Assembly: GCA_001600635.1 (NCBI GenBank)
Contig: BCKL01000023.1
Coordinates: forward strand, 251,852-315,851
From: Leucosporidium creatinivorum
Lineage: Eukaryota > Basidiomycota > Microbotryomycetes > Leucosporidiales > Leucosporidiaceae
DNA: 64,000 nucleotides
Direction of reading: 5' to 3'
The stretch's first letter is position 1. Each line of letters opens with the position of its first letter. The translations under genes were made by a program, and so were the position numbers. The notes beneath the pieces are model-generated. The model had not been told where the DNA came from and did no database searches. It was given only the letters and a program-made list of their open reading frames with translations. Shown here piece by piece: positions 17,407 to 64,000 of this stretch.

Positions 17407-18225
17407 TCTGCAACTCGAAAGAGGTTGGTACAGGGATTTGACGTCGGTGGCGGGGAGTCGAGACTTGAGCTGCTCGGCGAAGGCTCTCCGTTGGACGTGA
17501 GGGCGGCTGGGGCTCCCGCCATGCCACGCGAGTGCTTCGCGGGCCTTTCAACAGCATTAGGCGCTACTCTGATGTTGTCTGAAGCTCGATCGGGGACACA
17601 GGACTCGTTGCAGACCATCGAGTTCAGGCTCGGCGAACGGTTCGGCGAAGTCTGCTTCTAATCTTTGCCACTTGCGCTATCCGCCCCTCCACCCTCAGTC
17701 GCAGCAAGATACCAGCCGACGCTCGTAATTGTACGATGTCACTCCCTCGTCGCATCGCTCTTTAGCGAGGTGCCCAATACATCTGGCCCTCCCAAATAAC
17801 ACCCTTACACTTCGCCGAAACTTGGCTCTTCTCCTTCTGCCGTCGTTTGCCCGCCATTTATTTGCCTTTCTGCTCGCTCTTGCTGCTCTACATGGTCTTG
17901 CACCTCCTGATACTCGAGATCAATCGGCGACCGGAGGGCGATGTGTGGCCCCCCTCGCTCAGCGACGGCCTGTTCAGACTTGCGAGAGTGCGAGCTTCGT
18001 TCGCTTTCACCACATCTTGCTTGATTCGCTTCTTCGCCACTACTCGACTACTCGCCTGCAGCTCCCCCCCAAGCGCTCTACCGCCCTCCCAAGGCATCCT
18101 TACGCTCCACCCCCACAGCCAGATCATCGGTCGACTCTCAGCAGGTGCGTTTCAACTTTTGGCAGAGGCGAAGCAGCCAGCGCGGGAAGCTGCGCAGAGC
18201 ACTGACTATCAGCAACCTACAGATA
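17407..18225. promoter_or_regulatory. bZIP gene upstream region with a 5' UTR intron
   Basis: 819 bases before the bZIP ATG. A good intron lies at 18145-18222 (donor GTGCGT, branch ACTGAC, acceptor CTACAG) and ends just four bases before the ATG, so the gene probably has a spliced leader. The remainder shows C/T tracts but no coding content. Confidence 0.55.
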
Positions 18226-19628
18226 ATGACCAACGTGCTCACTCCCAACTCGTCCGCCAACTCGCCTTGGTCCACCTTCATTTCGTTCCCCGCCGACTCG
18301 CCCAAGCCAGCAGCGACTGCTACTCGTACAGCTTCTCCCCGACCTTCAACTCTCCACCATCGGGAAATCAACCCATTTGAAGACTCTTTCGCCCCCGACA
18401 AGGTCGCTGCTTCGAACATTGCGCGTGATGGGAGGTCGATTCGGCCCAGCACCAAGCGTCCCAGTCCGGAGGAAATCGAGGAGGAGCATCAGAGGAGGGC
18501 ATCGAGGGATGCAAAGAGGCCCAAGTTGAGGTTGGGATTGCATGCAGCAGTCAGTGGGAGCAGTTCGGCGGATTCGACCGCCTCCTCCTTCTGCAAGACC
18601 ACCTCGGACATCTCTCGGTCCAAGTCGACGACCATCTCGCCCAACTCTTCGGTCGCGCCGTCACCCGTTTTGGAGGAGCTCAAGGCCGATACTGGAAGCC
18701 TCATCGGCCAGCTAGCCGTCTCGGCGGCATTGGCCGGACCCGCTCCATTCCATTACCAGCCCGCTCCCCTTCCCATCACCCTCAACGCCGCTCGGTCGGA
18801 GTATGTCCAGCCTTTCCACGCCTCTATGGCACCCTCAACCACCTTTATCCCTCCCGTGCTCTCCTGCTCGGCCCCCTTTGCCGCCTTCGCTCCCGACAAC
18901 CTCATCTTCGATCCCTACGCCTCGCTCCCGCCCGCTCTTCTACAACCGGTCGCCCTTCCCGAGCTCCCCGTACCTCCTCCTCTCGACCTCGCCTCTCCTC
19001 TCCTCTACGATGTCGACGAGGCACCTCGACCAGCTGGCAAGAAGCGAGGGAGGAAGCCGAAGAACGCTCCCACGGTCAGCCAGGCCGAACTCGAGCAGGA
19101 GCGCAAGGAGGCATTGGATCGGAACCGTATTGCGGCGAGTCGCAGTAGGCAGCGCAAGAAGGAGCGAGTCGGCAACTTGGAGTCCAGTGAGTCCTCCTTC
19201 GCCTGCTCGGCGCTCGGTCCTCGACCTTTAAGTCGCATGACTAACTCTCCTCTCCCTTCGCAGCCGCTCAAACCCTCGCCAACAACAACCTTGCCCTTCA
19301 AGCCGACTGCCTCCAACTCCGCGCCGACGTCGACTCTCTCCGAGCCCTCCTCGAGCAAATCCACCCGCAGCCCTCCTGCTCCTGCGAGCACGTCCAAGGC
19401 TATCTCGCTCGCGAGCGGGATGGAGGAGGAATCCCTACGATCGAGAGGATTGCAGGCGAGGTGTTGACGAAGGATTATGGGAGGATGCCGAGTAGTGGGA
19501 GTCAGGTTGGTGGGGAGGAGGCGAGGAACCGGGAGGAGGACATGGAAAGGAGAATGGAGATGATGGAGGAGGAGGAGGAGCAGAGGGTGGTGGTGCAGAA
19601 CGCTATCCCTTTGAGGAAGAGGGCTTGA
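18226..19628 (+). CDS. ATF/CREB-like bZIP transcription factor (first of three)
   Basis: Start MTNVLTPNSSANSPWSTFI, chosen because the in-frame region upstream is a 5' UTR intron. An N-terminal HHREINPFEDSFA motif recalls the NPF motif of fungal Atf1-type factors. There is a long S/P-rich middle, then AGKKRGRKPKNAP (AT-hook-like basic), and the bZIP basic region DRNRIAASRSRQRKKERV. One intron follows; the leucine zipper exon begins TAQTLANNNLALQADCLQL and continues to a Cys motif PSCSCEHVQGYLARE, GGGIPTIERIAGEVLTKDYG, and an acidic Met/Glu-rich end with stop 19626-19628. Nuclear DNA-binding dimer. The same Cys motif and NPF motif recur in the genes at 40.5 and 43.0 kb, so these are paralogues. 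Confidence 0.88.
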
Positions 19629-22912: not shown

Positions 22913-25900
22913 TCAAGCAGTAGTAGCGGAACCCTCGAACCAACCTCCGCTGATCCACTCGGGGGCGCTGGACATAGCACGGTCAGCCTCGAGATCAACC
23001 AAGACTGCGCCGAGCTCCCATCCCGAACTCACAGAGCGCCTTCCTTCCTACAGACAGGGTCGAGCACTCCAGCCATGATGACACCAAGTCTCTTCATGGT
23101 GATGGGCTTCCTAAGCACGCCGTCGAAGCCGGCCTCGCTGATTTCGCGCCTCTGCTCCGGTTCGATCTGCGCCGAGCAGGCAAAGATGGGCAGGTGGCCG
23201 TTGATGATGATGCTGGCGCGATCGGAGTAGGGCATGAGGGTCTCGCGGAGGCGGATGGCGCGAGTAGTCTCGACTCCGTTCATGTGCTGTGGGGCGAAGG
23301 CAGAGGTAGGTCCATTGTCTTGTCGTCGCCGAAGTCAGGCGAATAGACGGGCGAGGGAGTGACGTACGGGCATCTGCGTAAGACAGATTAGCTCTCTGAT
23401 CCCGATACAAGATGCTGAGATGACACCCTACTCACCTGCAAGTCGAGGAGGACGGCATCCCACTCGCCATCGGCGTCGAGCAGACGAAGGACTTCTTTGC
23501 CATTCTCGCAGGTGCCGACCTGGTGTCCATCTCGGGTGAGGATCTTCTCGAGGAGGTGACGATTAATGGGCTCGTCCTGCTCGAGGGACACACGAAGATC
23601 AGCTTGATGCTCGGCCGAGGGGACTCTGGTCGAACAGCTCACATCGACGACCAGGATCTTCATAGGAGTGGCTTGAGGACTTGAGCGCTCCTTCTTGGTC
23701 GATCTCGAGTCAAGAGGGAACGGCGAAGAAACACTGCGCGGCGCCGACGACCTCGAAGAGCCAACGCCGAGGTCGCCAGGCGCGGGCGTCGCCTTCTCGG
23801 CAGGTTCCTCGGGCGGAGCCATGTGCGAGGAAGTGATGGCGGAGAGGAGGGTGTCCATCTCCCAGCTCTCCCTAGGCGTAGCGGGACGGGGAGGCGCATC
23901 AGGGCGCGACCTCGGCGCCGAGGTCTGAGGCAGGCGCAGAGGGACGTTGATGCTGAAGCTGGTGCCGCTGCCGGGCTTCGACTCGACGCGGAGTTGTCCG
24001 TTGAGACTCTTGATGATGCTGGAGACGACGGCGAAACCGAGTCCGATGGAAGGGGCTTGCTCCTCCTCCTCGCCGTTGGCGGCGCTGACCTCCTCGAGCT
24101 GCCTGAAGATGGCCTCGAGAGTAGTCGACGACATACCGCAGCCCGTATCGGTACTGTTCGAGTGTGGAGTAGTCAGTTTTGCTCGATGCCGGATATGAGG
24201 AAAGGTAACGGCGCACATCTTGAAGACGACGGCGAGTTCGTTGCTCGCCTCGCTGACCGCTGCCTCCTCACCTTCCATCGCAAGCTTCTCCTCCAGACCC
24301 CACTCGACACGCACACCTCCATGCTCGGTGTACTGGACGGCGTTGGCGCAGAGGTTGGAGATGATCTTGCGGAGCTGCGAAGAGTCGCCGAGCAGGAAGC
24401 GAGGGGCGGGTGCGAGTTGGGAAGGAGAGACGTCGAAACGCAAACCCTTGTGGATCGCTTCTTGACGATGCATGGCGGTAGCTTCTTCGAGCATCTCCTC
24501 CAAGTCGAAGAGCTCCTCGATCGTCGACGGCTCGCCCTTTTGCACCTTTGAGAGGCTCAGAAGGTCGTCGACGACGCGGATGAGCGACTTGGATGCGGTA
24601 GCCGAGCTAGTGAGGCTGTCGCGAAGGTCATCGTCCAGTCCCTCTTCTTGGAGCGCGACGTCGAGGTAGCTGCGGAAGGAGAGGTCGACTTTGAGCGAGG
24701 ATCTCGAGTCTCATGCTCGGCGAAGACCTACTTGACGATCTGGTTGAGCGGACTGCGCGCCTCGTGAGCGGCGTTGCCCATGAGAAGCTTGTTGAGGCGT
24801 CCACTCTGAGCGTGGCCTTCCGACTCGCGCCAGAGCTTGATGAAGCGACCTGCGAGAGCGAGCCGAAGCCGAATCAGCTGGGAACTGGCCGGCGAGAAGA
24901 GGTCAAGGCGACGAACCGTAGACAAAGCTGATCGTCGCCGCATGCTGCTGCTCGGCTTCCGTCCAAGGGTCGCACTTGCCGGAGACGAGCTCGCGCCAGA
25001 GCTGAAGGGGACAGGAAGGTCAGCGCGAGCCAAGTTCTTCGACGCCGAGCGACGAACCTTGAACGAGCTACGAGGCTCCAGGGTCTGGGTATCGTGACCT
25101 GGGAAAGGGTTGCCCGCCCAGTTGACGATCTGATCTTGACCTTTGCGGAAGAAGACGATCTGCTCTCGCGAGTTGAAGGAGAGCGGGACAGCGAGGAAAC
25201 CGGCAAGGTCCTTGACGCCAGCTTCGGCGAGCTCGGGGAAGTCGGTCTTGATGTCGTTGGTGCTGATGATCTCGCTGGAAAGCAGACTTTGGTCAGTTCG
25301 ACTTCGGGAGCGGCGAGGATGATGGCAAGCTCACTTGAGCTCCTTCGAGCGGAGGTAGTTGACGATGGTGAGCATCTCGCTCGAGTCGTCGACCTTGCCG
25401 ATGAGCTGTAGGGATACAATGTGAGCTGATCGATTCGCTGATACGAAGGGGGGACGGCGCACCTTGGTAGAGCCGCTGATGGTCAGACAGCCGTTCTCGG
25501 CGCTCATGATGTCGAGGAGATCCGGCGGGCTGGCGATGGAAGGCGACTGCTCGTGGATCTTGGCGTTGATAACTTGTCTGTTATGCGGCGGTTCGAAGGT
25601 CAGCTATGCCCCTCGCTGCAAACAATCGACTGACTTGGCCTCCAACTGCTCGCGCAAGATGAGACTCTCGAGGTTGATCGACACCGAGTCAGCGATGAGG
25701 ACGCAGAGACGGCGAATGGGAGGGGCCACTCGTCTTCCGTGCTCGCCGTAGTCGTGCAATGCTACGAGAGCATACAGACGGCCGAAGAGGTGGAGTGCGA
25801 CTGCGCCGAGGCCCGAAGTCAGCTCGGCGAGAGCCACTCATCGCATATCGGTGCTCACCGGACATGCTGCTCTTGACATTCATGTTCTTGAGGTAGCGGA

Positions 25901-27609
25901 TGTGAATAGGCGACATCGCGCGGAGGTAGCAGTGCGTCATGTCCAGCGGCGTTTCGACCTCAGCGATGTCGCGACAGCAGAGGCGAGCGGTAGGCTGGTC
26001 TCCATCGTAAAGGAGGCGAATCTTGTTCATCTTGTAGAGGTCGCGGGCTTGAGGAGGGATGTTTGTGGGCGAGGTGAGTTCAGTCAGTGGCGATTGAAGG
26101 CAGGGCGCAGCGCCGAGAACGGCCACAGCAACAGAGAGAGATACAGGGGACCTATGAGATGCAATGGCGAAGTAAAGTGATCATCACTCACCCGAGGCTG
26201 GCCACACGAGACCCCTGAAGACGTCCTTGAGCTTCCAGACATCGGCCTGCTCGGCGACGACATGGCCGTTATTCGCCTCGTCGAAGTGGTAGATCATCAC
26301 TCGAGCGAAGGAGCAGATCTCCTTGTAGATGCGAGCGACCATCTTCGAATGTAGCGAAGGTCAGCAGTATGCCGGAAAGAGCGTGCTCGGCGAGGAACTC
26401 ACGTTGAGGAAGACATCTTGAGTAGCGTGCTGACTCGCCAGACTGAGCTGCTCTTGGATGTCGGCGAGCAAGCGCAAGTAGTCCATCTCGCCCTTGCCAC
26501 CTCGCGCCTTCCTCTTCTTCCACCTTCCCAGCTCGTGAAGCGGTTCGAGCGCCGACTCGGTCGCCGCGTCGAGCTCTTCTTGGGTGCGCTCCAGCTCCTC
26601 CGAGGTGGCCAGACCCAGCTTGGAGATGCGAACGGTCTCGGACGAGGGCGGAGGCGAAGGAGGGGGAGCGAGTGGGTTCTGCTCATCGTCGACAAGCTCG
26701 AGCTCGAGGACGGCGCGGCGAGGCTGATGGATGGGGCTCGGGCGATGAATGGCGCAGTGACGCTCCTTCTCGCTGCCTTCTTCTCCCCACGACATGATGA
26801 AGGGGTGAGGGTTACGCTCCCGACCAGGCGAGAGCGGGCGGTCGTAGATGTCGAGCGCATCGGCTACATCGAGGATACTCTCTTCGGGGAGGAGGGCGGA
26901 GAGTGAGTCGGCGCCGAGGACCTCGTGCGGTGGGTAGCTGAGGATGCTCTCCGAGTTCTGTGCGAGAGAGCAATCGTTATCAGCTAACACCCCATCGCCG
27001 AGAACGCCGAGCTAAGTCACCTCGCTGATCTGCATGACCGGGAGACGTCCATCTTCGAGCTGGTCGAAGGCGAGGAGGCATCCGTAGGCTTGTACGGCTC
27101 CGGGGAGGTGGATGGGCTGCAGAGTTCGTGTGGAGGTCAGCTTTTTGCTCTTCTTTTCAGCCGATTCGACTCACCTCGTCCTCGCACCGCGCCAGCTTGC
27201 CCTCCCGACCCGTCAGGATGTAGTGACCGTCGTCGCGCTTGACGTAGCTGAACCTCTCCGTCTTGACTCCCCAATCATGTCTCTCCTGATCGCGACTGAG
27301 CACCGTAGGCGAGGAGAGGCCGCCGAACGAAGAGATGGAAGCGATGGAGACACGCGAGCTCGGCGCGAGTCGAGGGCGACTGGGGAGGGAGGAAGGGGTG
27401 TCTCCTGGTGCCGAATGAGCTCCCAGGAGCGAGCTAGAGCTGCTCGGCGACGAGAAGGCGCTCTTGGGCTGAGGGCGAACGAGAGGCGAGCTCGAAGCTG
27501 ACTCTAGGCCGCCAGAAGAGCGACGAGGCGTGAGGATGGGGTAGATGCGTTGCGTTGAGGTGCTTTCCTGCTGCTGCTGTTGAGCAGGAGTGTCTGTGGG
27601 AAGCGACAT
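22913..27609 (-). CDS. fungal phytochrome hybrid histidine kinase 1 (downstream copy)
   Basis: Red/far-red photoreceptor of the PAS-GAF-PHY-kinase-receiver type, from MSLPTDTPAQQQQQEST (27609). After an S/P-rich tail comes the bilin-attachment Cys in ARCEDE, spliced to PIHLPGAVQAYGCLLAFDQ. The GAF has ARVMIYHFDEANNGHVVAE, VFRGLVWPAS, then ARDLYKMNKIRLLYDGDQPT and MSPIHIRYLKNMNV. The PHY tongue keeps VNWAGNPF and EPRSSFKLW. Kinase: H-box NAAHEARSPLNQI, N-box SNLCANAVQYTEHGG, DTGCGMSS, GLGFAVVSSIIK. Receiver: DEPINRHLLEKIL, phospho-Asp in LLDLQMP, Lys in VLRKPI. A last intron leads to APEWISGGWFEG; stop 22913-22915 (without that splice it ends at 23029). Oddity: the intron between VWPAS and the DIPPQ codons ends in AA, not AG. 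Other departures from copy 2 are NMNV for NMGV and AR for DR. Confidence 0.88.
26063..26191 (-). other. phytochrome 1 intron lacking the expected AG acceptor
   Basis: Reading on the minus strand, the donor at 26191 is a normal GTGAGT. By comparison with the second phytochrome (acceptor CTCCAG before ACATCCCT), the exon should resume at 26062 with ACATCCCTCC, but the two bases before it (26064-26063) are AA. No AG lies between the CATAG far upstream (which would give a stop) and CTCAAG at 26048. Splicing at 26048 would stay in frame but drop 15 nt coding DIPPQ. Confidence 0.7.
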
Positions 27610-28057: not shown

Positions 28058-31000
28058 TTAGAGAGCAGGAGAATCTGGCTGCTGAGGGGGCGCAGGGGGT
28101 CGGAAGCTCGGCGCGCCTTCTAGCCAGCCGCCTTGCTCCCACACGCCGCGTCTGCAGGTCAAGCGCGATTAGCGAGGAGAACGGATACATCTAAGAAAAC
28201 AAAGCCGCTTACCTGTAGACCTCGGCTCCACGCGTAGCTCGGTCGATGGCTCCTCGCATGAGCCCTCGGAGCCGCTTGAAGTCGACGGGCTTGAGGGACC
28301 AGCCGTCTGCAGAGGGGGGAGAAGTGGGGTCAGAAGGGGCACAGGAGGCTTCAGACGTCGCGCAGCACTTACCGAAGCCAGAGTCGACCAAGCGGGGCTG
28401 CTCCTTTTCGGGGAGAGAGGCCGAGACGGCGATGATGGGAAGACGACCGTTGAGAATGGTGGAAGGTCGTAGCTCGGCGTGCGGGAGAGGAGCCTCCGCC
28501 TCCAGCGCACGGATGGCCTCGGTCGCTTCGAATCCACCCATTATCTGCAGGAGAGGAGGGTCAGCTTCGGCGATCTCGGCGGTGAGGGGAAGAAACAGTC
28601 GCAACGCACTGGCATCATGAGGTCCTGTGGGACGGCGGAAGAAGGGTGTCAACATGGTTCTTCGGTTCGTGAAGCTTGAGCCGACCCACCATCAAGATCA
28701 GATCAAAAGCGAAATCCTTCTTGAGCAAACGAAGGGCTTCCCCTCCATGCACAGCGATGACGACCTCGTGTCCATCTTTGGCGAGTCGCTTCTGCAGTAT
28801 CATCCGATTGACGAGCTCGTCCTGCGCCGAAAAGAGAAGCGGGACGAGAAGGGTCAGCTTTGGCGACGACTCGGAGTCGAGGTCAAGCTGCACTCACCTC
28901 GACCACCAACACCCTCAACGGCGAAATCTTGTCTGCCACCCCATCCCCGACCATCTTGTACTCGGAAATATGCGACGGGCTCTGCTTCGCCGCCGCCGAG
29001 TCTGCGACGTCGTTCCGACTCGCCGAACTCTGCCTGCGGAGACCGCTCGTCGTCGGCGGTGAACGAGGCTTGACGCCGTTGGAACTTGTACGCGACGAGT
29101 CGGGAGAGACGGGTCGAGAGGTGGCAGTTGAGGAAGGCTGAGGACTGGAGGGTTGAGGACTGGCGGAGTCAGGGTGGGGACTGGAGGGGACGGGATCGAT
29201 CTTGACAGCTCGGAGGGGAACGTTGGAGCCTGGAAGGTCGACGCTGCCTTGTGTAGCCGATTGCTGAGGTCTGCCGGAGCCAAAGCGACCGAGACCGCTC
29301 TTCTGGCCTCGTGATCCGCCGCCCGAGGAGGTGTGCGAGCGAGCGGAGCGTGGCGGCTGAGGATCGAGGATGGAGGTCGAGAGGCTGGTGATGAGGGAGT
29401 CGATGGAGCCTTTGTCCGAGCCGGCGCTTCCTTTCCCAGCCGAGTTACGGCTATCGGATCGAGCGAGAGTCGTCGCGCCTGTCGCGGTGCTTGCTCCTCG
29501 ACTGGTGCCGAGAGCGCTGATGGTGCGGGAGGAGCCAGTCCCTGAGCCGCCGGGCGTGGTGTCGTCCGAGCTATCCATATTGGGGCGGAGGGAGTCTTGG
29601 AAGGGTAGCCGGAAGGGGAGGATGAAGGTGAAGCTGCTGCCGCTCTTGCCCTCCGCGACGCTCGACTCGACGCGGAGCTGGCCCTCGAGGTTTCTGTAGA
29701 TCGTGAGGTGTCAGAACGAGCTCTGGAAAACGTTTGTGAGAAGCGAGATGATCTCACTTGACGACACGAGCGACGACAGCAAGGCCGAGGCCGACAGCGC
29801 CTGTCGTCGAAGCAGGGCTCTGCGCACCGTCAGCCGAGACCTGCTCAAACTCGCGGAAGATGGCCTCGAGACGCTCCTCCGAGATGCCGACTCCACTGTC
29901 GCGGCTGCAGGCGAGCGGGAAGATGAGAGGTCAGGCTCGGTCGTGTCGCTCGCGCAGCGCGGAAGACGTACATGGAGATGCCGATACGAATGCTATCCTG
30001 CTTCTTGTCGATGGCGTCTTCGATATCCTACACCACAGCATTAGGGTCAGCTCTCCTCCCTCTGCCCTCACCTCGGCCGAAACTCACCACATCGGCCAAC
30101 TCTCCCCACTCGACCAAGATCCCTCCCGTCTTCGTATGCTCCACCGCATTCCCCACCACATTCGTAATGATCGTCTTAATCTTGCTCCGATCCCCCAACA
30201 ACGTCGAAGGTGTCCCACTCGGATTCTCAATCACCTCCAACGTCAACCCTCTCTGCTCGACCTCCGTTCGATAGACGCTGATGGCTTCCTCGATGGTGCC
30301 CGGTAGGTCGAAGGGATCTTGGGAGAAGAGGTCTTGGCCTGGTTCGGAGGCTTGCGTGAGCTCGAGGAGATCGTTGACGACGTGGACGAGGGAGCGGGAG
30401 GCGGCGTGCGAGTTGGAGAGGTTGCGTCGGACTTCGGGGGTTAGGTCGTCGTCTAGAGCGAGTTGGAGGTAGCCGATGATCTAGTGGTGTAGGTGGGGTT
30501 AGCTGAAGCTCCTCGCCTGAGGAGAGAAGCAAGACGACTTGCCTGGTGAAGAGGCGTCCGAACCTGATGCGAAGCGTTCTGCAGCAACAGCGTCTTCAAC
30601 CTCGACTGCCTCAACGCATCCTCCTTCTCCCTCCACACCGAGATGAACCTTCCATACACCAACGCCAACGTCCCTGCCGTCTCCCTCTGCTCATCCGTCC
30701 ACTCTCGACACCGACCGACGACCATCTCGGACCAAGCTTTGAAGCTCTGCCTCGGCTCCAAGGGGTTGTAGTCCGCTCCTTGCCGTTTGTTGGCGTAGGG
30801 GTTGCCCGCCCATTTGACTTCTTGCAGCTGGCCTTTGCGGAAGAAGGCGATGAAGTCTTTGCCTTCGGCCGAGAGACTGCGAGAGGATGAGGTCAGCGCC
30901 GAGCGAGTGTAAAGTGGCCAAGGAGGACGCACGGAACACTCAGTACACCGGCGATCAAGTCGAAGGAGGCGTAGTCAACACCTGGCCAGTCGGCGTGGAT

Positions 31001-33442
31001 GTTCTGAGTCGCCTCGGTCGTTCTGGAAGGGGGGAGAGAAGGCGAGTTAGCGTGAGCTCGTCAATGAACGCAGAGAGATGCGACTCACGTAAAGCGCCGG
31101 CCGCGAAGGTAGTTGAGGACGACGAGAAGCTCTTGCGAGTTGCTGACGGCGCCGAGGATCTGCTCGAGCAAGAGAGGGTCAGCAGCGCTCCGCGAAGACT
31201 GAATCTCGGCGCTCGTCTCGCTGGCTGAGGGAGAACTCACCTTGGCTTCCTCGCCAATGCTGAGCACTCCAAAGTCGGCGTCGAACAGAGACTAGAGAAA
31301 GAACGGTCGACGTCAGTTCAGAATCTCCGCCGCGCCGAGTCGCCCTCAAGCTTCGAGCCAAACTCACCAGCAAATCATCCCCATTGGCCACGATATATCC
31401 GCTCGGATTGCTAGCCGTCGGCGTCGTATTGATGAGCTTCCTCGAGTGGATCCTCCTCGCGTAGCTGAGCCGTTCGATATTGCGCGAGATGGAATCGCCG
31501 AGGAGCTTGCACAGTCTATCGAGCGTCGAGGACGGTCAGCTCCCACCTCGACGAACAGAAGAAGGAAGCGACTCACTCTCGGACCGGAAAGTTGACCCTC
31601 TTGCCGTATCGTCCATAGTTGTGGAGCGCGACGAGCCCCCACAGTCCTCCAAACGCGCAAATCGAGATGCTCATGCTGGACCTGACGCCCATATTGCTCA
31701 GATACTTGAGATGAATGGGGGACATGGCCCTCAGATGCGCATGAGTCATATTGAGCGGATTGTCCACCTCGGCGGCATTGCGACAGCAGAGCCGAGCGGT
31801 CGGTTGGTCGCGGTCGTAGAGGAGCCGGACTTTGTTGATCTTGTAGAGCTCGCGGGCTTGGGCAGGGATGTCTGGAGAGGCCGGCGGAGGGTCAGTAAGA
31901 GGTTCAGCGAAGGAGAGAGAGAAGACGAACCGCTGGCGGGAAAGTTGAGGCCCGCGAAGAGATCCTTGGTGGCGGACCAGTCGGCGAGCTCGGCGACGAC
32001 GCGGCCGTTCCAGCCTTCGTCGAATTGCTGTAGAATACACGCCGAGGTCAGTGAAGGTCGCTGAGCAGCAAAGAGGGGCGCAAACCGTACGTAGATCATA
32101 CAACGGTCGAACTCGGAGATGTCCTTGATGATGGCGGCGACGGTCTGCGCTCGCAAGGAGAGGTCAGCTCCTGTAGCCTAGTCGATAGGCGGAACAACAC
32201 ACCTTGAGGAAAGCCTGCAGATCCTGCGCCCTGTCCAACTGCTCATTGATCTGCGCCAGCAGGGCAATCAAATCCACATCTGCCCTCCCCGTCCTCTTGG
32301 CACTATTAGTCCTAACCCTCGCCAAAGCCCTCAACGGCTTGATCAACGTCACAGTGCTCTCCCTCAACTCGGCCTCAGTAGGGTTGGTCGCAGTATCCCC
32401 CGCGGCCATGCCTCCTCGTTCGTCTTCGGCGATGGGCTCGGAGGAGACGGTGCTCGTCGGGTTGATCGTGTCGTCCACCAGCTCGAGTTCGAGTACCGCG
32501 CGATTGGGCTGCCTGATCCGGTCGGGACGATGTAGCGCGCAATGCGCTTGCCATGCGAGTCGTCCTTCGCCGTCGCGCGAATTGGCCGTCCCCGGCTGCC
32601 CTTGTCCCGAGATGGTGAAAGTGACGGGCCCACGATCCATGTCGTTGGGGTCGGCATCTCGTTCGTCGAGGGTATCGAGCGCCTCGAGGAGGACGTCCAT
32701 CTCGTCGTCTTCGAAGATTGCCGTGAGGGAGGGGAGGCGGAAGAGGGTCGATGGGGAGAGGCCGATGATGAATTTGGAGTTCTCCGAGACTTGCTGCACG
32801 ACGAGACGTTCTCGGTCGAGTTGGTCGAAGGCGATGAGGCAGCCGAAGGATTGGATGGCGCCGGGAGCGTGGATGGCCTGGTGAAGACCGAGGTTCGGAG
32901 CCGAGCGGCGGAAGAGATTAGTCGGGCGAAGGCAGCTGGATCGGAGCAGAGCTACATACCTCGTCTTCACAGCGCTGCAGCTCTCCCTCCTTGCCCGTCA
33001 GAACGAGGTGTTCTCCGTCTTCGCCGACGGCATGCTCGAACCGAGTCGTCAAGTACTGGAGGCTCTTGATGCTGCCCGTTCCACTGAGGATCGCTGAAGC
33101 AGGGCCCTGCTGATTGACTCCACCATTCGCGAGCTCCTCCTGTAGCATCTTGGCGTGAGTTGTAGGTTCCGGCAGGACATCGTCGAGGGATTGTGAAACG
33201 ACAGAGTGGGCGACGTTGGGCGGGGCGACGTTTGCTGCCGAAGAGCTGGCCGAAGGGTCTGGAGGTACTTCGGCTTTGCGTAGTGATCCCGAGAGACTGC
33301 GACCGGCAGCGCTGGGACGCTTGAAGGAGGGATGGCGGACGGAGCGTGTGGGATAGAGGCGAGGTTGCGTCGAAGAGAGCTGGGAGGTTCGAGAGGAGAA
33401 GTTGTTGGGCTCTTCTCCTGCTTGGGAAGAGTCGGCTGACAT
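28058..33442 (-). CDS. fungal phytochrome hybrid histidine kinase 2 (upstream copy)
   Basis: Second complete phytochrome, same order as copy 1. Start MSADSSQAGEEPNNFSSR (33442). Bilin Cys in LQRCEDE, spliced to AIHAPGAIQSFGCLIAFDQ. GAF: FDRCMIY joined to QFDEGWNGRVVAELADW, NFPAS and, across a normal intron with CTCCAG acceptor, DIPAQARELYKINKVRLLYD, then MSPIHLKYLSNMGVRSSMS. PHY tongue: VKWAGNPYANK and EPRQSFKAW. Kinase: H-box NASHQVRTPLHQ, N-box TNVVGNAVEHTKTGG, DSGVGIS and GLGLAVVARVVK. An S/T/P-rich linker of about 200 residues precedes the receiver (VLVVE, DELVNRMILQKRL, phospho-Asp in DLMMP spliced to IMGGFEATEAIR, Lys in WSLKPVDF). The last exon gives RGVWEQGGWLEGAPSFR; stop 28058-28060. 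All key residues appear intact, so this copy should be photoactive and kinase-competent. Confidence 0.92.
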
Positions 33443-40460: not shown

Positions 40461-42282
40461 ATGGCTACAGTACTCAGCTTGACACCTACAGGGGTGTTGT
40501 CCCGTCGAGGTGAGTCCCTTCGCGATTCGAAGGCTGTCCTGGCTCCCCCTGGCCGAGCATAAGCGAGGAGAGCTGACGTGCTGCAACTTGGGCCGCATCG
40601 CAGGTCGACCAGTTCCAACACATCCAACAGGACCAAGGTCTCCCTTTCTATCTCCTTCCATCTTCTCTGTACATCACTCGACCTCCGCCCTCCGCTCCAC
40701 CTCGCCGAACATCCTCGTTGGCTCTGCAGGCGCGTTGCCTTCCTCCGCGGCCGTCTCTCACGACTTCGAAATCAACCCGTGGGAGATCGCGCTGGCGGAT
40801 CATTCAGCAGAAGGTGGGGGCGAGTCATTTGCTGCACGGAGCGTTGAGGACGGAGTTGGCGAGGTCGAGCTGAGGAGGGGGCTGTCGCCGAGATCAACTT
40901 GGGAGCAACATGCAGGTCTCGGGAAGCGAGGTCTGCCCTCCCCAGCTCTGGTGGTAGTACAAGACGGAGGTATTGAATCGATGGAGGAGCGTCAGTTGAG
41001 GAGGGCGAGGATGGAGGGAGGCTCAGAGGGCGCCGAGGGAACGGCGGATCGCTCTCGGCGCTTGTCAACCGCTTCGCGTATCGCATATCTGTCGCCGCCG
41101 CCGCTGGAACCCACGACATCAACGGACAGCTCCAGCAGCGACAATTCGCCTCGCCTGTCCCAGCCCAGCCTCACTTCGAGACCTTCGCCGAGGAAGACGA
41201 AACCCCTCTCAGCCTCTCCCTCGTTCACCATCCCTTCAATTCCCATCGCTCCTTCGCCCGAATCATCGGATCTCTTCTCCCGCGCCCAGCTGCAGCAAGA
41301 ACTACGACCCACCCCGTCGGAGCTTCGCATCCAAACCTACGACATTCGGCCGAGGCCCATCGACCTTGTACCCTCTCCTCGCCTCGATAATCTTCCCCCG
41401 CCGACCTTCTACTCGACTGCACCCCATTCCTTCTCTCCTCCCTCCGAACCTGCGCCTTCATCAACGTTCATCCCCCAGCCCGAGAGCCACGCAGCGCCAT
41501 CGCCGAACCTCCCACCCCGCCCTCAAGCCATCTTCCTTCCTCCTCTTTCACAAACTCCAACTCTCACACCATCCGCCCGCGCTCTGAAGGCCGCCGGGAC
41601 TCCTCCAACGCCTTACCAACCGCCACCTCAGACGGCTCTGGCGCCGAAGGAGGTGAAGACCGAGGCCGTTTCGGCAGCTCCCACCACCACCGCACCCTCG
41701 GAGAAGACTACTGCTTCGAAGAGGGGCAAGAAGGCGGCGGAGAAGGGCAAAGGCAAGGCGGCGGAGCCGGTGTTGGATGCGTTGGAGAGGAATCGGATCG
41801 CAGCGCAGAAGTGCCGAGCGAAGAAGAAGGAGAAGGTGCAGGGGCTCGCAGAGAGTGAGTAGCTACATCACTGGATCTCTTTTGCTAGTCGTCACTGACT
41901 CGTACCCTTGCCCTACACAGCCGAGGCAGCCCTCTCTCAAGCCAACACCTCCCTACACGACCAAGTCTCCTCCTTGCAAGCCGACCTTGCTCTCCTTCGC
42001 GCCGAAGTAGAGCAGCGACACCCTCGAGGCGGGTGTGGGTGTGGCGAGGTGCAATGGTGGAGGGCTCAGACGGAAGCGCACGATGCCGTAAAAGCCGAGG
42101 AGGCGCATTGGGAGGCCGAAGGGAAGGAGCTGAGAGGGCAACAGGATGTGGAGGAGGAGTTGGATGAGTTAGATGAGGATGATGAGCTGGACTCGCAGAA
42201 AGGTGTTGAACAGGCTCGAGGAAGGGAAGGAGAAGAAGTGGAGGATCCTGCTCGGCCGGCACGGAAGAGGGCGAGGAACTAG
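40461..42282 (+). CDS. ATF/CREB-like bZIP transcription factor (second of three)
   Basis: The start is in a short first exon: ATG 40461 gives MATVLSLTPTGVLSRR, preceded directly by an in-frame TAG, spliced (donor GTGAGT at 40510, acceptor CGCAG) to GRPVPTHPTGPRSPFLSP. A long open frame beginning at the donor GTG is therefore not the true start. The motif SHDFEINPWEIALAD matches the NPF-type motif of the other two genes. A long S/P-rich middle follows, then GKKAAEKGKGKA and the basic region LERNRIAAQKCRAKKKEKVQ, an intron, the zipper TEAALSQANTSLHDQVSSLQ, and HPRGGCGCGEVQWW in the place of the Cys motif. The tail is acidic (EEELDELDEDDELD) and ends in a basic RPARKRARN; stop 42280-42282. The zipper is short, which suggests heterodimerisation. 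Confidence 0.85.
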
Positions 42283-43013: not shown

Positions 43014-44816
43014 ATGAGCACCGGAGCTGGAGTCCCGCCTTCCTTCGCCTCCTTCACTTTCGCCAATAGAGGTGAGATGCGGGACCCAAGGGCGCGTGCT
43101 CTTCTGCGGCAACAGCTACTGACGACTCTCCCTCTGCTCCTGCTCCCTCTCTGATGCTGCACAGGCGAGCCATCTCCTCGTACTCCAGGCTCCGCCGGCA
43201 ACTCTCCCTGGTCGAGCTTCTTGAGGAGCAGTCCCGGTCTTTGGACGACTGGCGTGCGTTCCAACTCGCTGCCGCCGACGCCTTCAGAGCTTCGTAGCAG
43301 TCTGGGACGCGAGGAGAACCCCTTCTCGGCCGCCTTTTCCGTCAACGCCCTTCCCTCAGCTCATCTCGACCTCGACGCGGCTGGCGACAACGAGCAAGAA
43401 GGCGAAGATCCGGCCACCGACGATGACCCGGTGGGGAGGGGCAACGTGCGAGGAGGGAAGAAACGGGCACATTCACTACCGGCGGAGGATGCATCGACAG
43501 AGCAGAGGCTCGGCGCAGGCGAGAAGGAGGTCCAAGCCCCGCCGAGCAAGCGTCCAGCGTTCGCAGCGGGCGCGTTCGGCGGTGAAGTGCTCCAGAGACC
43601 AGCATCAGAACATCGGATGAGCTTCAACAGCATCTCGGACCACACCTCCGGCAGCGACGGCACCAAGCCTACCCCCAGCACCTCGGTCGAGCCTTCGCCG
43701 AAAGCCTCCCTCTTCGACCAGCTCAACGCTTCCATGCCCTCGGACCGCTCCACGCACAACTACTACCAACCCGCACCACGCCCCTTCGCCTACCACGGCG
43801 ATGCGAGCCTCGGCAGTCACCCTCCGGCGGTCGCCTCCCCTCCCCTTCTGCGACCGCCTCCCTACGCCGCGCATCCGACCTTCAGCCTTGACACCTACAG
43901 TCTCCAGCGCTCATCTCCGGGTCCTCTACCCTCACCCCCCGTACCTCAGGCAGCACAAGAGCACCGCCGTTCCTCGGCCCAGCCTCGCGCGACACTCGCA
44001 ACCTCCACCGAAACGGCGGCAACGCGACCTCCACCCCCTACGCAAGCTCTCCCGCCGCATAACCCCGTACCTCAACCACCGCCTGCATCTCCCTCAGCCA
44101 TCACCGTTGTGCCGGGACCGAAGAAGCGAGGACGAAAGCCGAAGGACCCCAATGCGCCTGTAGACCAAGAGCAGGCGGCCAAGGCTCGTCTCTCGGCTTT
44201 GGAGCGTAATCGGTGAGTCTCCATCTTTTATATGCCGAGTCTTCGGCCGTTCGAGCGAGTCGGAGCTGACCTTGCTTCTCGCCTTCTCAGCATCGCTGCC
44301 AGCAAAAGCCGAGCTAAGAAGAAGGAGAAGGCCGCCAACGCTGAGTCTGGTGAGTGTCTGATACTGCCGCTCAGCTATTCTACTCGCTTCTCTGCGCTTC
44401 GCTGACCCGAACTGCGCCCACTCGCAGCCGTCACCGACCTGTCCCACTCCAACGCTCAACTACAAGCCACAGCCCTCGCCCTCCGCGCCGAACTCCTCGC
44501 CCTTCGCCAACAAATCGACTACGAGCACCCCGACCAATCGCGCTGCACCTGCGAGCACATCAAGGGCTATCTCCATCGCGAGGCGACAGGCGGAGGGATC
44601 CCGACGCTCGACCGATTGGCGGGAGAGACGTTGTCGAGGGATTACGCGACTGCTGTCGACTTGGGTCCGGAGCCACGGGAGTTTGACGGTGTAGCAAGGA
44701 GCGAGAGTGGAGAGGTGGAGGAGGAGATGGAGGGACCGGCGCCGCGCTCGGCGGTGGTTCAGGCGCCGCCGGTGGAGGGAAGGATAGCCATCCCGATCAG
44801 GAGGTCGGTGAGGTGA
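43014..44816 (+). CDS. ATF/CREB-like bZIP transcription factor (third of three)
   Basis: Start MSTGAGVPPSFASFTFANR in a short exon, spliced to GEPSPRTPGSAGNSPWSSFL. The N-terminal motif LGREENPFSAAFS corresponds to the NPF motif of the other two. Middle part S/P/Q-rich; then PGPKKRGRKPKDPNAPVD and the basic region split by an intron (LERNR, then IAASKSRAKKKEKAANAES), then zipper AVTDLSHSNAQLQATALALR and the Cys motif RCTCEHIKGYLHREATGGG with PTLDRLAGETLSRDYA, nearly the same as in the 18 kb gene. Stop 44814-44816. Four exons. It lies in tandem with bZIP 2 (732 bases apart), suggesting local duplication followed by divergence. A decayed piece of its second exon is present near 62.9-63.1 kb. 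Confidence 0.88.
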
Positions 44817-44963: not shown

Positions 44964-46266
44964 CTACGGCATGTTGACCTCGAAGCCCTCCAGCAGCGCC
45001 AACACCGCTCCCTCGTCCTCGACGCCGACCAACTCGCTCACGCCGACCTCGGCGATGATCCTCGTCAAGCTCTCCATCGCCCTTTGACTGATCTGTCCTG
45101 GCTCATCACGACTGAAACAGAGCTCCAGAGCGTGTACGAGTGATAGCATCCTCTCTTGACTGTCCGGAAGCTGGTTGGCGCCGGTTGAGAGCGTTTGGAC
45201 GAGCTGCGCGAAGGAGGAGAGGGCTTGCTTGACGAGGGTGGGGAGGAGGGAGGTCGCGGTACTGGGAGGGAGCCGCGTAAGGGCGTGCTGTATGATGATG
45301 GGGAGAGCGGTAGGCGGGATGGCGGTGGCGGAGCAGACGCTGGCAACGAGGTCCGAAAAGAGGTCACCGAGCTGTGGAGGAAGGCGGCAGAGTGTCAGCT
45401 GGTGGACAATTTACTGAGCTCAAGAGGGAAATTAAACTCGATTCACAGCACTATCGACTCCGCCGTCGACCTCAGTACTCTTTCCCAACCGCTCAACGAC
45501 CCACATCGACAGTCTGACCGCGCCGACGATGGCCTCCTCCCGCTCTCTCCACGCGCGAGACTCCTCGTTCGAGCTGCTGCTGCCTTCAATCACCGTAGCG
45601 ACTAGCTTGAGTATCTCCGAGACGACGAAGGGTAGCGTTGCCGGCGACTGAACGAGGAGCGAGACGATTTGAGCGGCGGTGGGCGAGACTGGAGAACGAT
45701 AGGTTAGCTTCNGTACTCAGGGCCGANNCCAGCTACTANANTCACTCNTCTCNGCNANCTTCACAGCCTCGGAATNNGTAGGAACGACGAGGTAGTCCTC
45801 AGNACGANCGTCGGCCGAGCGANNGCCGNNNGANGAAGCCTCTGTTCGNCTGCAGGTCAGCTCTGACTGATCCCCAAGCCTCGGAAGACTCACTGCTGCC
45901 TTCTCCGCCCCTTCCCTCCATCGTAGAGCCCTCACTCGGCCTCCCATCTTCCNCACTCGCTCGCGCTNNCANAGGCTCCTTCGAATGTGCCCCGGTCGAT
46001 GGTCCACNATTCGCTCCAATCGCTTGTATACACTCTCGAAGCTGAGCGATNTACTCTGTGGTGATGTAGGTGAGTGATTGGCCTGCTCGCGGGGTCAGCG
46101 TGCTCGCAACTCGCCTGAGATGGAGAGGTGAGGCGGCCGGGTTTCGAGCAGCACGAGGGCCTGTAGGAGAGCAGCGGTCAGTGNCTGTAGCCTTACAGAG
46201 ACGCTTCAGACTCACCACTGCAATNCTGATGCGGTGAGCTGCTGTAGGNGTGACGTGCGAATCCAT
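44964..46266 (-). CDS. unidentified helical-repeat-like protein (sequence has ambiguous bases)
   Basis: Model from MDSHV (46266) to stop 44964-44966. Readable pieces, in order: PTAAHRI, ALVLLETRPPHLSIS, GQSLTYITTE.IAQLRECIQA, an S/E/G-rich linker, SPTAAQIVSLLVQSPATLPF, VSEILKLVATVIEGSSSSNE, AIVGAVRLSMWVVERLGK, then LGDLFSDLVASVCSATAIPP, IIIQHALTRLPPSTATSLLP, QALSSFAQLVQTLSTGANQL, MLSLVHALELCFSRDEPGQI and AMESLTRIIAEVGVSELVGV. The regular amphipathic helices resemble HEAT/ARM-type solenoids. At least five exons. Many N calls between about 45,713 and 46,266 fall in its first half, so exon borders there are uncertain. I do not recognise the family. Its stop is only 147 bases from that of bZIP 3, to which it is convergent. 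Confidence 0.6.
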
Positions 46267-46411
46267 CGAGATGAAGAGCTGGAAGCGAAAAGAGGCTCGG
46301 CTTTCGCTCTCCTTCTCCTTCTCCNTGTCCTTGTCTCTNCTACTTCCTCTCTCCTCGTCAAGCTCTCNCTCTCACTACTCTGCTANNTCATCAGCTCANC
46401 TGCAGCTTCGG
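45713..46411. other. low-quality stretch with scattered N bases
   Basis: Isolated and paired N calls are scattered over about 700 bases. This is sequence uncertainty, not a scaffold gap, and it covers the first exons of the minus-strand helical protein and the likely first exon of the membrane protein gene. Confidence 0.9.
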
Positions 46412-46533: not shown

Positions 46534-47921
46534 ATGCTCGTTCCCACTCCTGCATCTCGACCCGAATGGCATCACCTACAGCACCGAGCTGAAGCAGCAG
46601 AAGCCACGCCAGTCGCCTCGCTCGTTGGCAAGCTCTCAGGATCGGGTACGCAGGTCTTCGCAGAGGACACCGTCGTAGTCCCACTTTCCAAACTCACTTT
46701 CGAGTGCCCTGCTGGGGAGAAGAAGACCTGGGCCTTGGGAACGCTCAACGGTGTCGACGCTCAAAGTGCAGCGGGGAACGGCTGTTATGTATCTTATACG
46801 GGCACCTTCACACAGGGTGAGCTGGCTCACACACTCGCTGGGTCTTCTGCTCACCCTCCCTCTGTCGACAGCCTGGTTTCGAGGCGGCGCCGGCTCGGAC
46901 GCCTTCGGGCAGGAAGGCCAGTTCGGCTGCATGTCCGTTCTTCGACTTATCCTGAGGCCTGGAGCTGACCTCCAAGTCGAACAGAGACGTAGATGCAAAT
47001 AAGGTTGTCTCGAAGAAAGCCTTCTTGCCTTCTGGTGGTGTCAATCTGGTCCTGTGAGTTTCGCCTCGTCGTTGACAGTCGATCGGCGCTGACTTCCCGC
47101 TTCGACATAGATGCCAATGGAACGTCCTGGACGGGGCTATGGAGCACACATTACGGGTCACAAACCCTGCTGCTGGCTCGATTAACGTCGGAAGGCTGCT
47201 GATCACCGGTGAGCTTCAAGGGCGCTCCCTCGGCGAACGAAGCTGACGGCTTTGCACCTGCAGACCTTGTCTACACGACGAGCAATAAGGTACATATTGA
47301 TACTAAGTAAGATCTTGCTTTTCTCTCGCACCTGTGCAAAGCTCAGACACCTCTGCGCACAGGACAAGGTCCGATCCGACCATCACCTTCGATCCCATCA
47401 CCTTCTCCGACGGATCTGGATCCGATGACACCACTACGACTGCAGAAAGCGATGAAGCTACAACATCTTCTCCTACGCGCACCTCCTCACCCATCTCGAC
47501 CACGTCTTCCTCGTCCTCAGCTTCCTCCTCGTTGGCGCCGAGCTCCCCTTCTTCAACTCCCGCCTCGTTCGCTCAGGAAGCAGCCACCACCTCGGCAGCA
47601 CCTACCTCCACCTCAGGAAACGCTGTGTCATCCGCTTTAGGTCTCACTACCAACCAGCTGTACCTGGTCGGCGGAGGCCTAGCGCTTCTCGCCCTCGGTC
47701 TCGTTGCCGCTTGCTTCTTCGCCAGTCGGAACCGGAAGACAGTGCAGACTGCGCCAGCGTCTGCTCCACCACTGGAGCAGAAGAGTCTGAGGAAGGGTAG
47801 GAGAAGGAGACAAGCAGTCGAGACGGAGAGTGAGACTGATTCGAGTGGGAGCGAGGAGCAGGGATGGGATCGCCGAGGGAGAGCAGAGGGCGGCGAGGAG
47901 ACACGCAGGATGCTGGGGTAG
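46534..47921 (+). CDS. single-pass membrane protein with Ser/Thr-rich stalk (copy A)
   Basis: The first supported ATG is 46534, but MLVPTPASRPEWHH is no signal peptide, so an upstream signal exon in the N-containing stretch is likely. The outer domain reads GTQVFAEDTVVVPLSKLTFE, CPAGEKKTWALGTLNGVD, GCYVSYTGTFTQ, then across introns DVDANKVVSKKAFLPSGGVN, LCQWNVLDGAMEHTLRVTN and GRLLITDLVYTTSNK, a beta-rich fold of the kind seen in basidiomycete surface proteins. A long S/T linker follows (likely O-mannosylated), then one membrane helix LYLVGGGLALLALGLVAACF, a basic stop-transfer (ASRNRK) and a charged tail ending TRRMLG; stop 47919-47921. Several exons. A nearly identical inverted copy starts at 63137. 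Function unknown; a wall sensor or adhesion role is only a guess. Confidence 0.7.
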
Positions 47922-48264
47922 GGAGGGAAGCGTGTCAAGATATATCGCTACATATGAGAAGCGTTCAGCATGCAGCTCAGAGCGAATCACGACACTGCTC
48001 GACGAGTGCTCCGAGAGCACCTGGCGAAACGAAAGGGCGGAGCGGTGTACAGCAGCCGACGATGCCTTCAGCCTGACGATCTGAAGCCTCTAGTAGCTGC
48101 TCAACGCATCGCACTCGACCTGTACTGAGCCGGGTTGAGGGGACGGAGAGTTCGGAGCCATTCGAGAGCGAGAGTTGGAGCCGAGCAAAGGCCAGCCGTC
48201 TCTTTTTCTTCCTCCTCCCACATCTCTGCTCGTTTGTTCTCGTCTCCCTCAACGCTCGGAAAGG
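47922..48264. other. intergenic between membrane protein and Hsp70-like gene
   Basis: 343 bases. The similarity with the 63-kb copy stops at the stop codon, so this 3' flank is unique in the window. C/T-rich before the next ATG. Nothing else is seen. Confidence 0.4.
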
Positions 48265-63112: not shown

Positions 63113-63136
63113 ATGTCACCTGACTGCCCTTGAGGC

Positions 63137-64000
63137 CTACCCCAGCATCCTCCTGCTTTCCTCATCGCTCTCTGCTCTCCCTCGGCGATCCCATCCCTGC
63201 TCCTCGCTCCCACTCCAATCAGTCTCACTCTCCGTCTCGACTGCTTGTCTCCTTCTCCTACCCTTCCTCAGACTCTTCTGCTCCAGTGGTGGAGCAGACG
63301 CTGGCGCAGTCTGCACTGTCTTCCGGTTCCGACTGGCGAAGAAGCAAGCGGCAACGAGACCGAGGGCGAGAAGCGCTAGGCCTCCGCCGACCAGGTACAG
63401 CTGGTTGGTAGTGAGACCTAAAGCGGATGACACAGCGTTTCCTGAGGTGGAGGTAGGTGCTGCCGAGGTGGTGGCTGCTTCCTGAGCGAACGAGGCGGGA
63501 GTTGAAGAAGGGGAGCTCGGCGCCAACGAGGAGGAAGCTGAGGACGAGGAAGACGTGGTCGAGATGGGTGAGGAGGTGCGCGTAGGAGAAGATGTTGTAG
63601 CTTCATCGCTTTCTGCAGTCGTAGTGGTGTCATCGGATCCAGATCCGTCGGAGAAGGTGATGGGATCGAAGGTGATGGTCGGATCGGACCTTGTCCTGTG
63701 CGCAGAGGTGTCTGAGCTTTGCACAGGTGCGAGAGAAAAGCAAGATCTTACTTAGTATCAATATGTACCTTATTGCTCGTCGTGTAGACAAGGTCTGCAG
63801 GTGCAAAGCCGTCAGCTTCGTTCGCCGAGGGAGCGCCCTTGAAGCTCACCGGTGATCAGCAGCCTTCCGACGTTAATCGAGCCAGCAGCAGGGTTTGTGA
63901 CCCGTAATGTGTGCTCCATAGCCCCGTCCAGGACGTTCCATTGGCATCTATGTCGAAGCGGGAAGTCAGCGCCGATCGACTGTCAACGACGAGGCGAAAC
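63137..64000 (-). CDS. single-pass membrane protein, copy B (inverted, runs off the window)
   Basis: The 3' part of a second copy of the 46.5-kb gene, in opposite orientation. Exons and introns from 64000 back to about 63217 look identical to 47057-47841 wherever I compared them (CQWNVLDGAMEHTLRVTN exon, GRLLITDLVYTT exon, the S/T stalk and the LYLVGGGLALLALGLVAACF helix). In the last 80 nt of coding sequence about nine differences appear (DSSGSEE becomes DWSGSEE; AEGGEETRR becomes AESDEESRR), and similarity ends at the stop codon. The frame is intact to the window edge. It could be a real paralogue, an allele-like duplication or an assembly effect. Confidence 0.8.

What the first reader, a model, noticed from the sequence alone, without database searches (positions are those of the whole stretch)
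26048..26191. Phytochrome 1 lacks an AG acceptor exactly at the PASDIP chromophore-pocket codon
In phytochrome 2 the intron splits the Asp codon of PASDIP and ends in AG. In phytochrome 1 the donor is normal but the matching acceptor reads AA. The only nearby in-frame AG (26048) would delete DIPPQ, removing the Asp that contacts the bilin pyrroles in bacteriophytochrome structures. So the copy either uses a non-canonical acceptor, makes a pocket-shortened protein, or is losing photochemistry while kinase and receiver stay intact.
Basis: partly seen in the sequence, partly recalled or inferred. Interest (0 to 1): 0.78.

Follow-up and report, generated by a model that had tools for sequence, protein, structure and literature searches.

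The report
Fungal phytochrome missing one splice signal
One of two neighbouring light-sensor genes in a fungus reads AA instead of AG at the end of one intron, right at the codon for the key light-sensing residue; if real, this would probably blind the sensor, but a sequencing error or a rare variant is not excluded.

Summary
Two tandem fungal phytochrome genes lie on the minus strand. In my two gene models 33 of 34 introns end in AG. The exception is phytochrome 1 intron 4 (26191-26063), which ends in AA at the same position and phase as a CAG-ending intron of phytochrome 2, inside the codon of the PASDIP aspartate. Donor, branch-point motif (CTGAC, 21 nt upstream) and reading frame beyond the intron are normal. 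The first AG after the branch point ends at 26048, is in frame, and would delete DIPPQ.

The 15 nt that would be lost still spell DIPPQ and match phytochrome 2 at 13 of 15 bases. The defect is therefore very recent, or only apparent (base-call error, minor allele), or tolerated (AA used, or edited).

One new result bears on loss of light sensing: the phytochrome 1 GAF domain has evolved faster than its twin's, while PHY and kinase have not. Yet every bilin-contact residue checked is intact.

Best reading: a recent acceptor loss that shifts splicing 15 nt and makes a light-blind phytochrome kinase. No reads, fungal relatives or transcripts could be examined, so an error cannot be excluded. The kinds involved are known; interest is modest.

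The parts
22913..27609 (-). Phytochrome 1 gene, 17 exons, 16 introns, 1210 aa if intron 4 is cut at AA: PAS_2, GAF, PHY, HisKA, HATPase_c, Response_reg
   Evidence: Gene model (drawn by eye); Pfam
28058..33442 (-). Phytochrome 2 gene, 19 exons, 18 introns, 1398 aa, same domain order; head-to-tail upstream of phytochrome 1
   Evidence: Gene model (drawn by eye); Pfam
26063..26191 (-). Phytochrome 1 intron 4, 129 nt, GTGAGT...CACAA: the only intron of 34 in the two models without AG
26063..26064 (-). AA where the acceptor AG is expected, 21 nt after the CTGAC branch-point motif
26048..26049 (-). First AG after the branch-point motif (36 nt); in frame (intron would be 144 nt); would remove DIPPQ
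26048..26062 (-). The 15 nt at stake; with the last base of exon 4 they encode DIPPQ (GAC ATC CCT CCT CAA), 13 of 15 bases identical to phytochrome 2
31872..31930 (-). Phytochrome 2 intron 4, 59 nt, same position and phase, ends in CAG
25635..26342 (-). Phytochrome 1 exons 4-6, most of the GAF domain, with introns 4 and 5; the GAF is faster-evolving than in phytochrome 2

Best explanation
Phytochrome 1 carries a recent single-base loss of the acceptor AG of an old intron shared with phytochrome 2 (AA in the DNA: shown; recency: inferred from the intact codons). Branch point and donor are still there, so lariat formation should proceed and the spliceosome take the next AG, 15 nt downstream at 26048, possibly with some intron retention, which stops after PAS-Gly-Glu (inferred). 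The main protein would keep PAS, PHY, kinase and receiver but lack Asp-Ile-Pro-Pro-Gln of the GAF pocket. By analogy with Asp-substituted phytochromes it could not complete the Pr-to-Pfr cycle and may load bilin poorly (inferred). The domain-specific acceleration of its GAF domain suggests that light sensing by this copy was already under weaker constraint than in its twin (statistical, moderate).
For: AA at 26064-26063 while 33 of 34 introns in the two gene models end in AG. Homologous intron in phytochrome 2 ends in CAG at the same column and phase. Branch-point motif CTGAC 21 nt before the AA; 34 of 38 introns with such a motif have it 13-32 nt before the end. The first AG after the motif is the acceptor in 31 of the 37 AG-ending introns that have one; the other 6 skip only AGs 5-19 nt away; 26048 lies 36 nt away. 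Splicing there is in frame. Asp is 67 of 68 and 37 of 38 in two partly overlapping bacterial sets, and D-to-L substitution blocks Pfr formation (passages of PMC11035067, PMC4658570). GAF branch of phytochrome 1 longer than that of phytochrome 2 (0.58 v 0.12; 0.46 v 0.19; phytochrome 1 longer in 58 of 59 bootstraps, and 93 of 100), with no consistent contrast for PHY or kinase.
Against: DIPPQ is still encoded intact. The bilin-contact positions looked at are intact in phytochrome 1. D199N in IsPadC keeps some function, so loss of the Asp need not be total loss, though here five residues would go. The relative-rate signal is modest: the simple chi-square passes 3.84 for only 14 of 68 and 8 of 38 outgroups, which are not independent. 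Among 53 strongly conserved GAF columns phytochrome 1 alone deviates at 4 and phytochrome 2 alone at 2. The outgroups are bacterial and distant. No transcript, read, strain or fungal relative could be examined, so the AA may be an error.
Confidence: 0.43

Rival explanations
1. The AA is a base-call or consensus error, or a rare allele of the sequenced strain; phytochrome 1 is an ordinary phytochrome with a normal CAG acceptor.
For: Everything else looked at around the site is intact: donor, branch-point motif, frame, DIPPQ codons, all six domains. It is a one-base transition. The window does contain poorly resolved sequence elsewhere: 35 scattered N at 45712-46399, close to a near-perfect inverted repeat.
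Against: No other frame, stop or acceptor anomaly was met in about 7.8 kb of phytochrome coding sequence and 33 other introns, so the local error rate looks low. The N cluster is about 19.6 kb away.
Confidence: 0.32
2. AA is real and still used: a non-canonical GT-AA acceptor, or an A-to-I edited acceptor, so that the mRNA keeps Asp and the protein is normal.
For: Would explain why DIPPQ and the pocket residues are conserved. 3' splice sites are reported as more flexible than 5' sites, and editing of GT-AA to GT-AG is mentioned as possible (PMC7072748, passages). A-to-I exchanges are reported in some basidiomycetes (PMC7306014, passages).
Against: A usable AG lies only 15 nt further on. Combinations other than the three main ones are 0.257% of annotated fungal introns. 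The 2020 review passage says basidiomycete editing had been studied only in Polyporales; a 2023 title on Coprinopsis appears in the listing. No unusual RNA fold is found around the site (z 1.12; 177 of 200 shuffles fold at least as well).
Confidence: 0.15
3. Phytochrome 1 is on the way to being a pseudogene: the intron is mostly retained, giving a protein that stops after PAS-Gly-Glu and an mRNA open to decay.
For: Retention gives an immediate in-frame TGA (read from the sequence). The GAF domain is faster-evolving.
Against: Kinase shows no faster evolution than in phytochrome 2 (the receiver was not tested); no other disabling change in the model.
Confidence: 0.1

Closest known systems
Fungal phytochromes (PAS-GAF-PHY-HisKA-HATPase-receiver hybrid kinases, such as Aspergillus FphA; the name FphA is recalled)
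   Same: Domain order and all six Pfam domains over their cut-offs in both genes; N-terminal Cys aligned with that of solved bacteriophytochromes
   Different: Two tandem copies, one without an acceptor AG at the PASDIP codon. The one paper looked at on this (PMC4422448, passages) describes basidiomycete phytochromes as a single subgroup, one ancestral type having been lost
Asp-substituted phytochromes such as DrBphP D207L/H and IsPadC D199L/N (engineered)
   Same: The same Asp of the DIP motif would be missing; D-to-L is reported to abolish Pfr formation, D199N to keep some function (passages)
   Different: Here five residues would be deleted by splicing in nature, not one substituted
Minor non-canonical GT-NN introns of fungi
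   Same: GT donor with a non-AG end (passages)
   Different: Usage not shown here; no RNA data

Membership tests
Fungal phytochrome hybrid histidine kinase | PAS_2-GAF-PHY-HisKA-HATPase_c-Response_reg in this order | tested here: met
   Both proteins (phytochrome 1 with DIPPQ kept), all six domains over the curated cut-off; GAF of phytochrome 1 only just, 22.6 v 22.4
Fungal phytochrome hybrid histidine kinase | Bilin-binding Cys before the PAS domain | tested here: met
   RCEDEPIH aligns with the Cys of solved bacteriophytochromes; RCEDE also in phytochrome 2
Fungal phytochrome hybrid histidine kinase | Asp of the DIP motif in the protein | tested here: inconclusive
   Encoded in the DNA, but its presence in the mRNA depends on an AA acceptor
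Fungal phytochrome hybrid histidine kinase | Other pocket residues and PRxSF tongue motif | tested here: met
   Tyr, Arg, His, Ser positions and PRxSF in phytochrome 1 agree with the majority of 68 bacterial relatives; the DrBphP position labels used are recalled
Fungal phytochrome hybrid histidine kinase | Bilin binding and red/far-red photocycle | not testable with these tools
   Needs protein and spectra
U2-type GT-AG intron | GT donor, branch-point motif, AG acceptor | tested here: not met
   GTGAGT and CTGAC present, acceptor AA; met if the intron ends at 26048
Stwintron (nested twin introns; definition from the abstract start in the listing) | An internal intron whose removal rebuilds the missing acceptor | tested here: not met
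   None of the five AGs between the AA and 25990 (26048, 26031, 26022, 26000, 25995) is followed by a base that would rebuild an outer AG; read by eye
U12-type intron | U12 donor and branch-point consensus (recalled) | tested here: not met
   Donor GTGAGT and CTGAC branch-point motif are of the kind seen in the other introns

The most novel reading that the evidence does not exclude
Phytochrome 1 has become, by one acceptor change, a natural light-blind phytochrome kinase that lacks DIPPQ, or a splice-switched receptor in which AA use versus the AG at 26048 sets the ratio of light-sensing to blind kinase, beside an intact tandem twin that keeps the photocycle.
Probability: 0.1. Interest if true: 0.6.

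Novelty: new member of a known kind. Interest (0 to 1): 0.3.

Why it matters
If the change is real and 26048 is used, it is a natural experiment on what a phytochrome kinase does without the residue at the centre of its photocycle, with an intact twin in the same locus for comparison. It would also show splice-site loss as a one-step way to blind a photoreceptor while keeping its kinase. If it is an error, it is a caution for annotation: gene finders that insist on AG would silently drop the key Asp.

Tried and rejected
Own genome: none is held for the window, so no strain or read check was possible. Viral contigs: 180 pattern matches, none encoding a relative. Bacterial genomes gave relatives usable only as outgroups. 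No fungal orthologue was reached, so the age of the AA cannot be dated.

Rejected: a stwintron with the acceptor rebuilt by an inner intron (no fitting AG down to 25990); a U12 intron; use of the AG at 26152 (40 nt intron, shorter than the 54-157 nt of the 44 introns read; out of frame and meets TGA); intron 4 as an oddity of length (129 nt is longest in the two phytochromes, whose others are 56-82, but the aquaporin-like gene has introns of 134 and 157 nt); an inserted repeat in intron 4 (longest other match in the window 15 nt); an RNA hairpin at the site (z 1.12).

Literature: no paper on such a phytochrome splice variant was seen in the listings (10 of 10 papers listed; 20 of 86; 20 of 28; 5 of 5; 15 of 210); these cover only the open PMC library. 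I saw passages of PMC7072748, PMC4422448, PMC11035067, PMC4658570 and PMC7306014; the stwintron papers and the Coprinopsis editing paper were seen only in search listings.

Rows left out of counts: of the 68 loci, all 68 entered the GAF comparison, 32 the PHY and 58 the kinase comparison; of the 41 loci did. The rest had no match passing the E-value and 60%-of-domain limits of the scripts.

Full report
What is there. The minus strand from 33442 to 22913 holds two phytochrome genes head to tail. I drew gene models by reading frame and homology. Phytochrome 1 has 17 exons and 1210 aa; phytochrome 2 has 19 exons and 1398 aa. Both have PAS_2, GAF, PHY, HisKA, HATPase_c and Response_reg over the Pfam cut-offs, the GAF of phytochrome 1 only just (22.6 against 22.4 bits; phytochrome 2 has 47.3). 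Short introns at high density and a fungal Zn2-Cys6 domain beside phytochrome 2 point to a fungus; the GC content of about 60% and intron style suggest a basidiomycete yeast, which is inference. No genome is held for the window.

The observation. Phytochrome 1 intron 4 runs from GTGAGT at 26191 to ...CCCACAA at 26063, where the last two bases are AA. The matching intron of phytochrome 2 lies in the same alignment column and phase and ends CCTCTCCAG before the same ACATCCC. Nine of the 16 introns of phytochrome 1, this one included, sit at exactly the same column and phase as one of phytochrome 2, so the position is old. Among 34 introns, 33 end in AG; with ten introns of the aquaporin-like neighbour it is 43 of 44. 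The models prefer AG by design, so the 43 are not an independent census. The point is that for intron 4 no AG allows the conserved protein.

How it would splice. A CTGAC branch-point motif lies 21 nt before the AA. Of 38 introns with a CTRAY motif, 34 have it 13-32 nt before the intron end; the other four lie at 40, 48, 86 and 87 nt. Six of the 44 introns have no such motif. The first AG downstream of the motif in intron 4 ends at 26048, 36 nt away. Of the 37 AG-ending introns with the motif, the first AG after it is the acceptor in 31; in the other 6 the skipped AG is only 5-19 nt from the motif. The 26048 site scores 6.2 on a small acceptor profile, where 13 of 33 real acceptors score lower in leave-one-out; the AA site scores 0.3. 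Use of 26048 keeps the frame and removes D-I-P-P-Q. Retention stops at once (PAS-Gly-Glu-stop, read). The 26031 and 26022 AGs are out of frame; 26000 is in frame and would remove 21 residues (positions).

What would be lost. In 68 bacterial relatives found with the GAF pair, the Asp is present in 67, Ile in 66, Pro in 67 and Gln in 62; the Gln count is biased because one search pattern contained it. In 38 relatives gathered by the PHY domain instead (of 41 loci fetched), Asp is in 37, Ile in 36, Pro in 36, Gln in 19. The two sets overlap in part, since some genomes are the same. Passages of PMC11035067 call the Asp nearly invariant and report a completely impaired photocycle for D199L in IsPadC, while D199N kept some function. 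Passages of PMC4658570 report essentially no steady-state photoconversion for full-length DrBphP D207L.

Evidence on age. The 15 nt at stake still encode D-I-P-P-Q and agree with phytochrome 2 at 13 of 15 bases, although third codon positions differ at 53% over the GAF domain. A stretch that had been intronic for long would not be expected to look like this. So the acceptor loss is very recent, absent in the cell (error, minor allele), or harmless (AA used).

Evidence on constraint. I compared the two copies against bacterial outgroups. For GAF the branch from their common node is 0.58 for phytochrome 1 and 0.12 for phytochrome 2 with 68 outgroups; with 12 of these, 58 of 59 bootstraps agree in direction. 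With outgroups gathered by PHY rather than GAF, 14 used in the tree, the lengths are 0.46 and 0.19, and 93 of 100 bootstraps agree. For PHY the lengths are 0.53 v 0.67 and 0.76 v 0.59, phytochrome 1 longer in 16 of 59 and 63 of 100 bootstraps; for the kinase 0.73 v 0.56 and 0.60 v 0.65, 24 of 59 and 47 of 99: no consistent difference. Phytochrome 1 alone has changed a W-G pair that is W-G in 68 of 68 and nearly so in the second set (35 and 37 of 38). Against this, the Tajima-type chi-square passes 3.84 for only 14 of 68 and 8 of 38 outgroups; among 53 strongly conserved GAF columns phytochrome 1 alone deviates at 4 and phytochrome 2 alone at 2; and the bilin-contact positions looked at are kept. 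I read this as weaker or different constraint on the GAF of phytochrome 1, moderately supported, and independent of the acceptor.

Verdict. The AA is really in the sequence as given and is unusual for a given gene pair (0.257% of annotated fungal introns fall outside the three main classes; PMC7072748, passages), but at that rate a whole genome would hold many such cases. The most likely story is a recent acceptor loss with slip to 26048 and a light-blind kinase. An error or rare allele is not far behind, and a used or edited AA acceptor is possible. Only reads, relatives or cDNA can decide.

Noticed in passing
47058-47922 and 63136-64000: Inverted repeat of 865 nt, 9 mismatches, all in the last 81 bases of the first arm; the second arm reaches the window end, so it may be longer. 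Each arm holds a 204-aa Ser/Thr-rich ORF with a hydrophobic stretch; the one scanned (first arm) has no Pfam match. Recent inverted duplication or assembly artefact.
   Followed up: partly
45712-46399: 35 N bases, scattered singly or in runs of two or three, about 0.7 kb before the first inverted repeat arm: locally poor assembly.
   Followed up: partly
23368-23373 and 28610-28624: Micro-exons of 6 nt (phytochrome 1) and 15 nt (phytochrome 2) in the receiver domain, encoding MP and DLMMP.
   Followed up: no
30481-30542: Phytochrome 2 intron 10 has a GC donor (GCAAGT...TAG), the only non-GT donor of 34.
   Followed up: no
18025-19467, 40483-41862, 43155-44216: Three ORFs on the plus strand, within about 26 kb, that look by eye to end in or near bZIP-like basic regions; Pfam finds weak bZIP in the first (below cut-off) and second (at cut-off) and nothing in the third.
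   Followed up: partly
GAF domain of phytochrome 1, about 25645-26342: Domain-specific faster evolution of the GAF in phytochrome 1, with LWGL changed to LYAL, not seen in PHY or kinase.
   Followed up: yes
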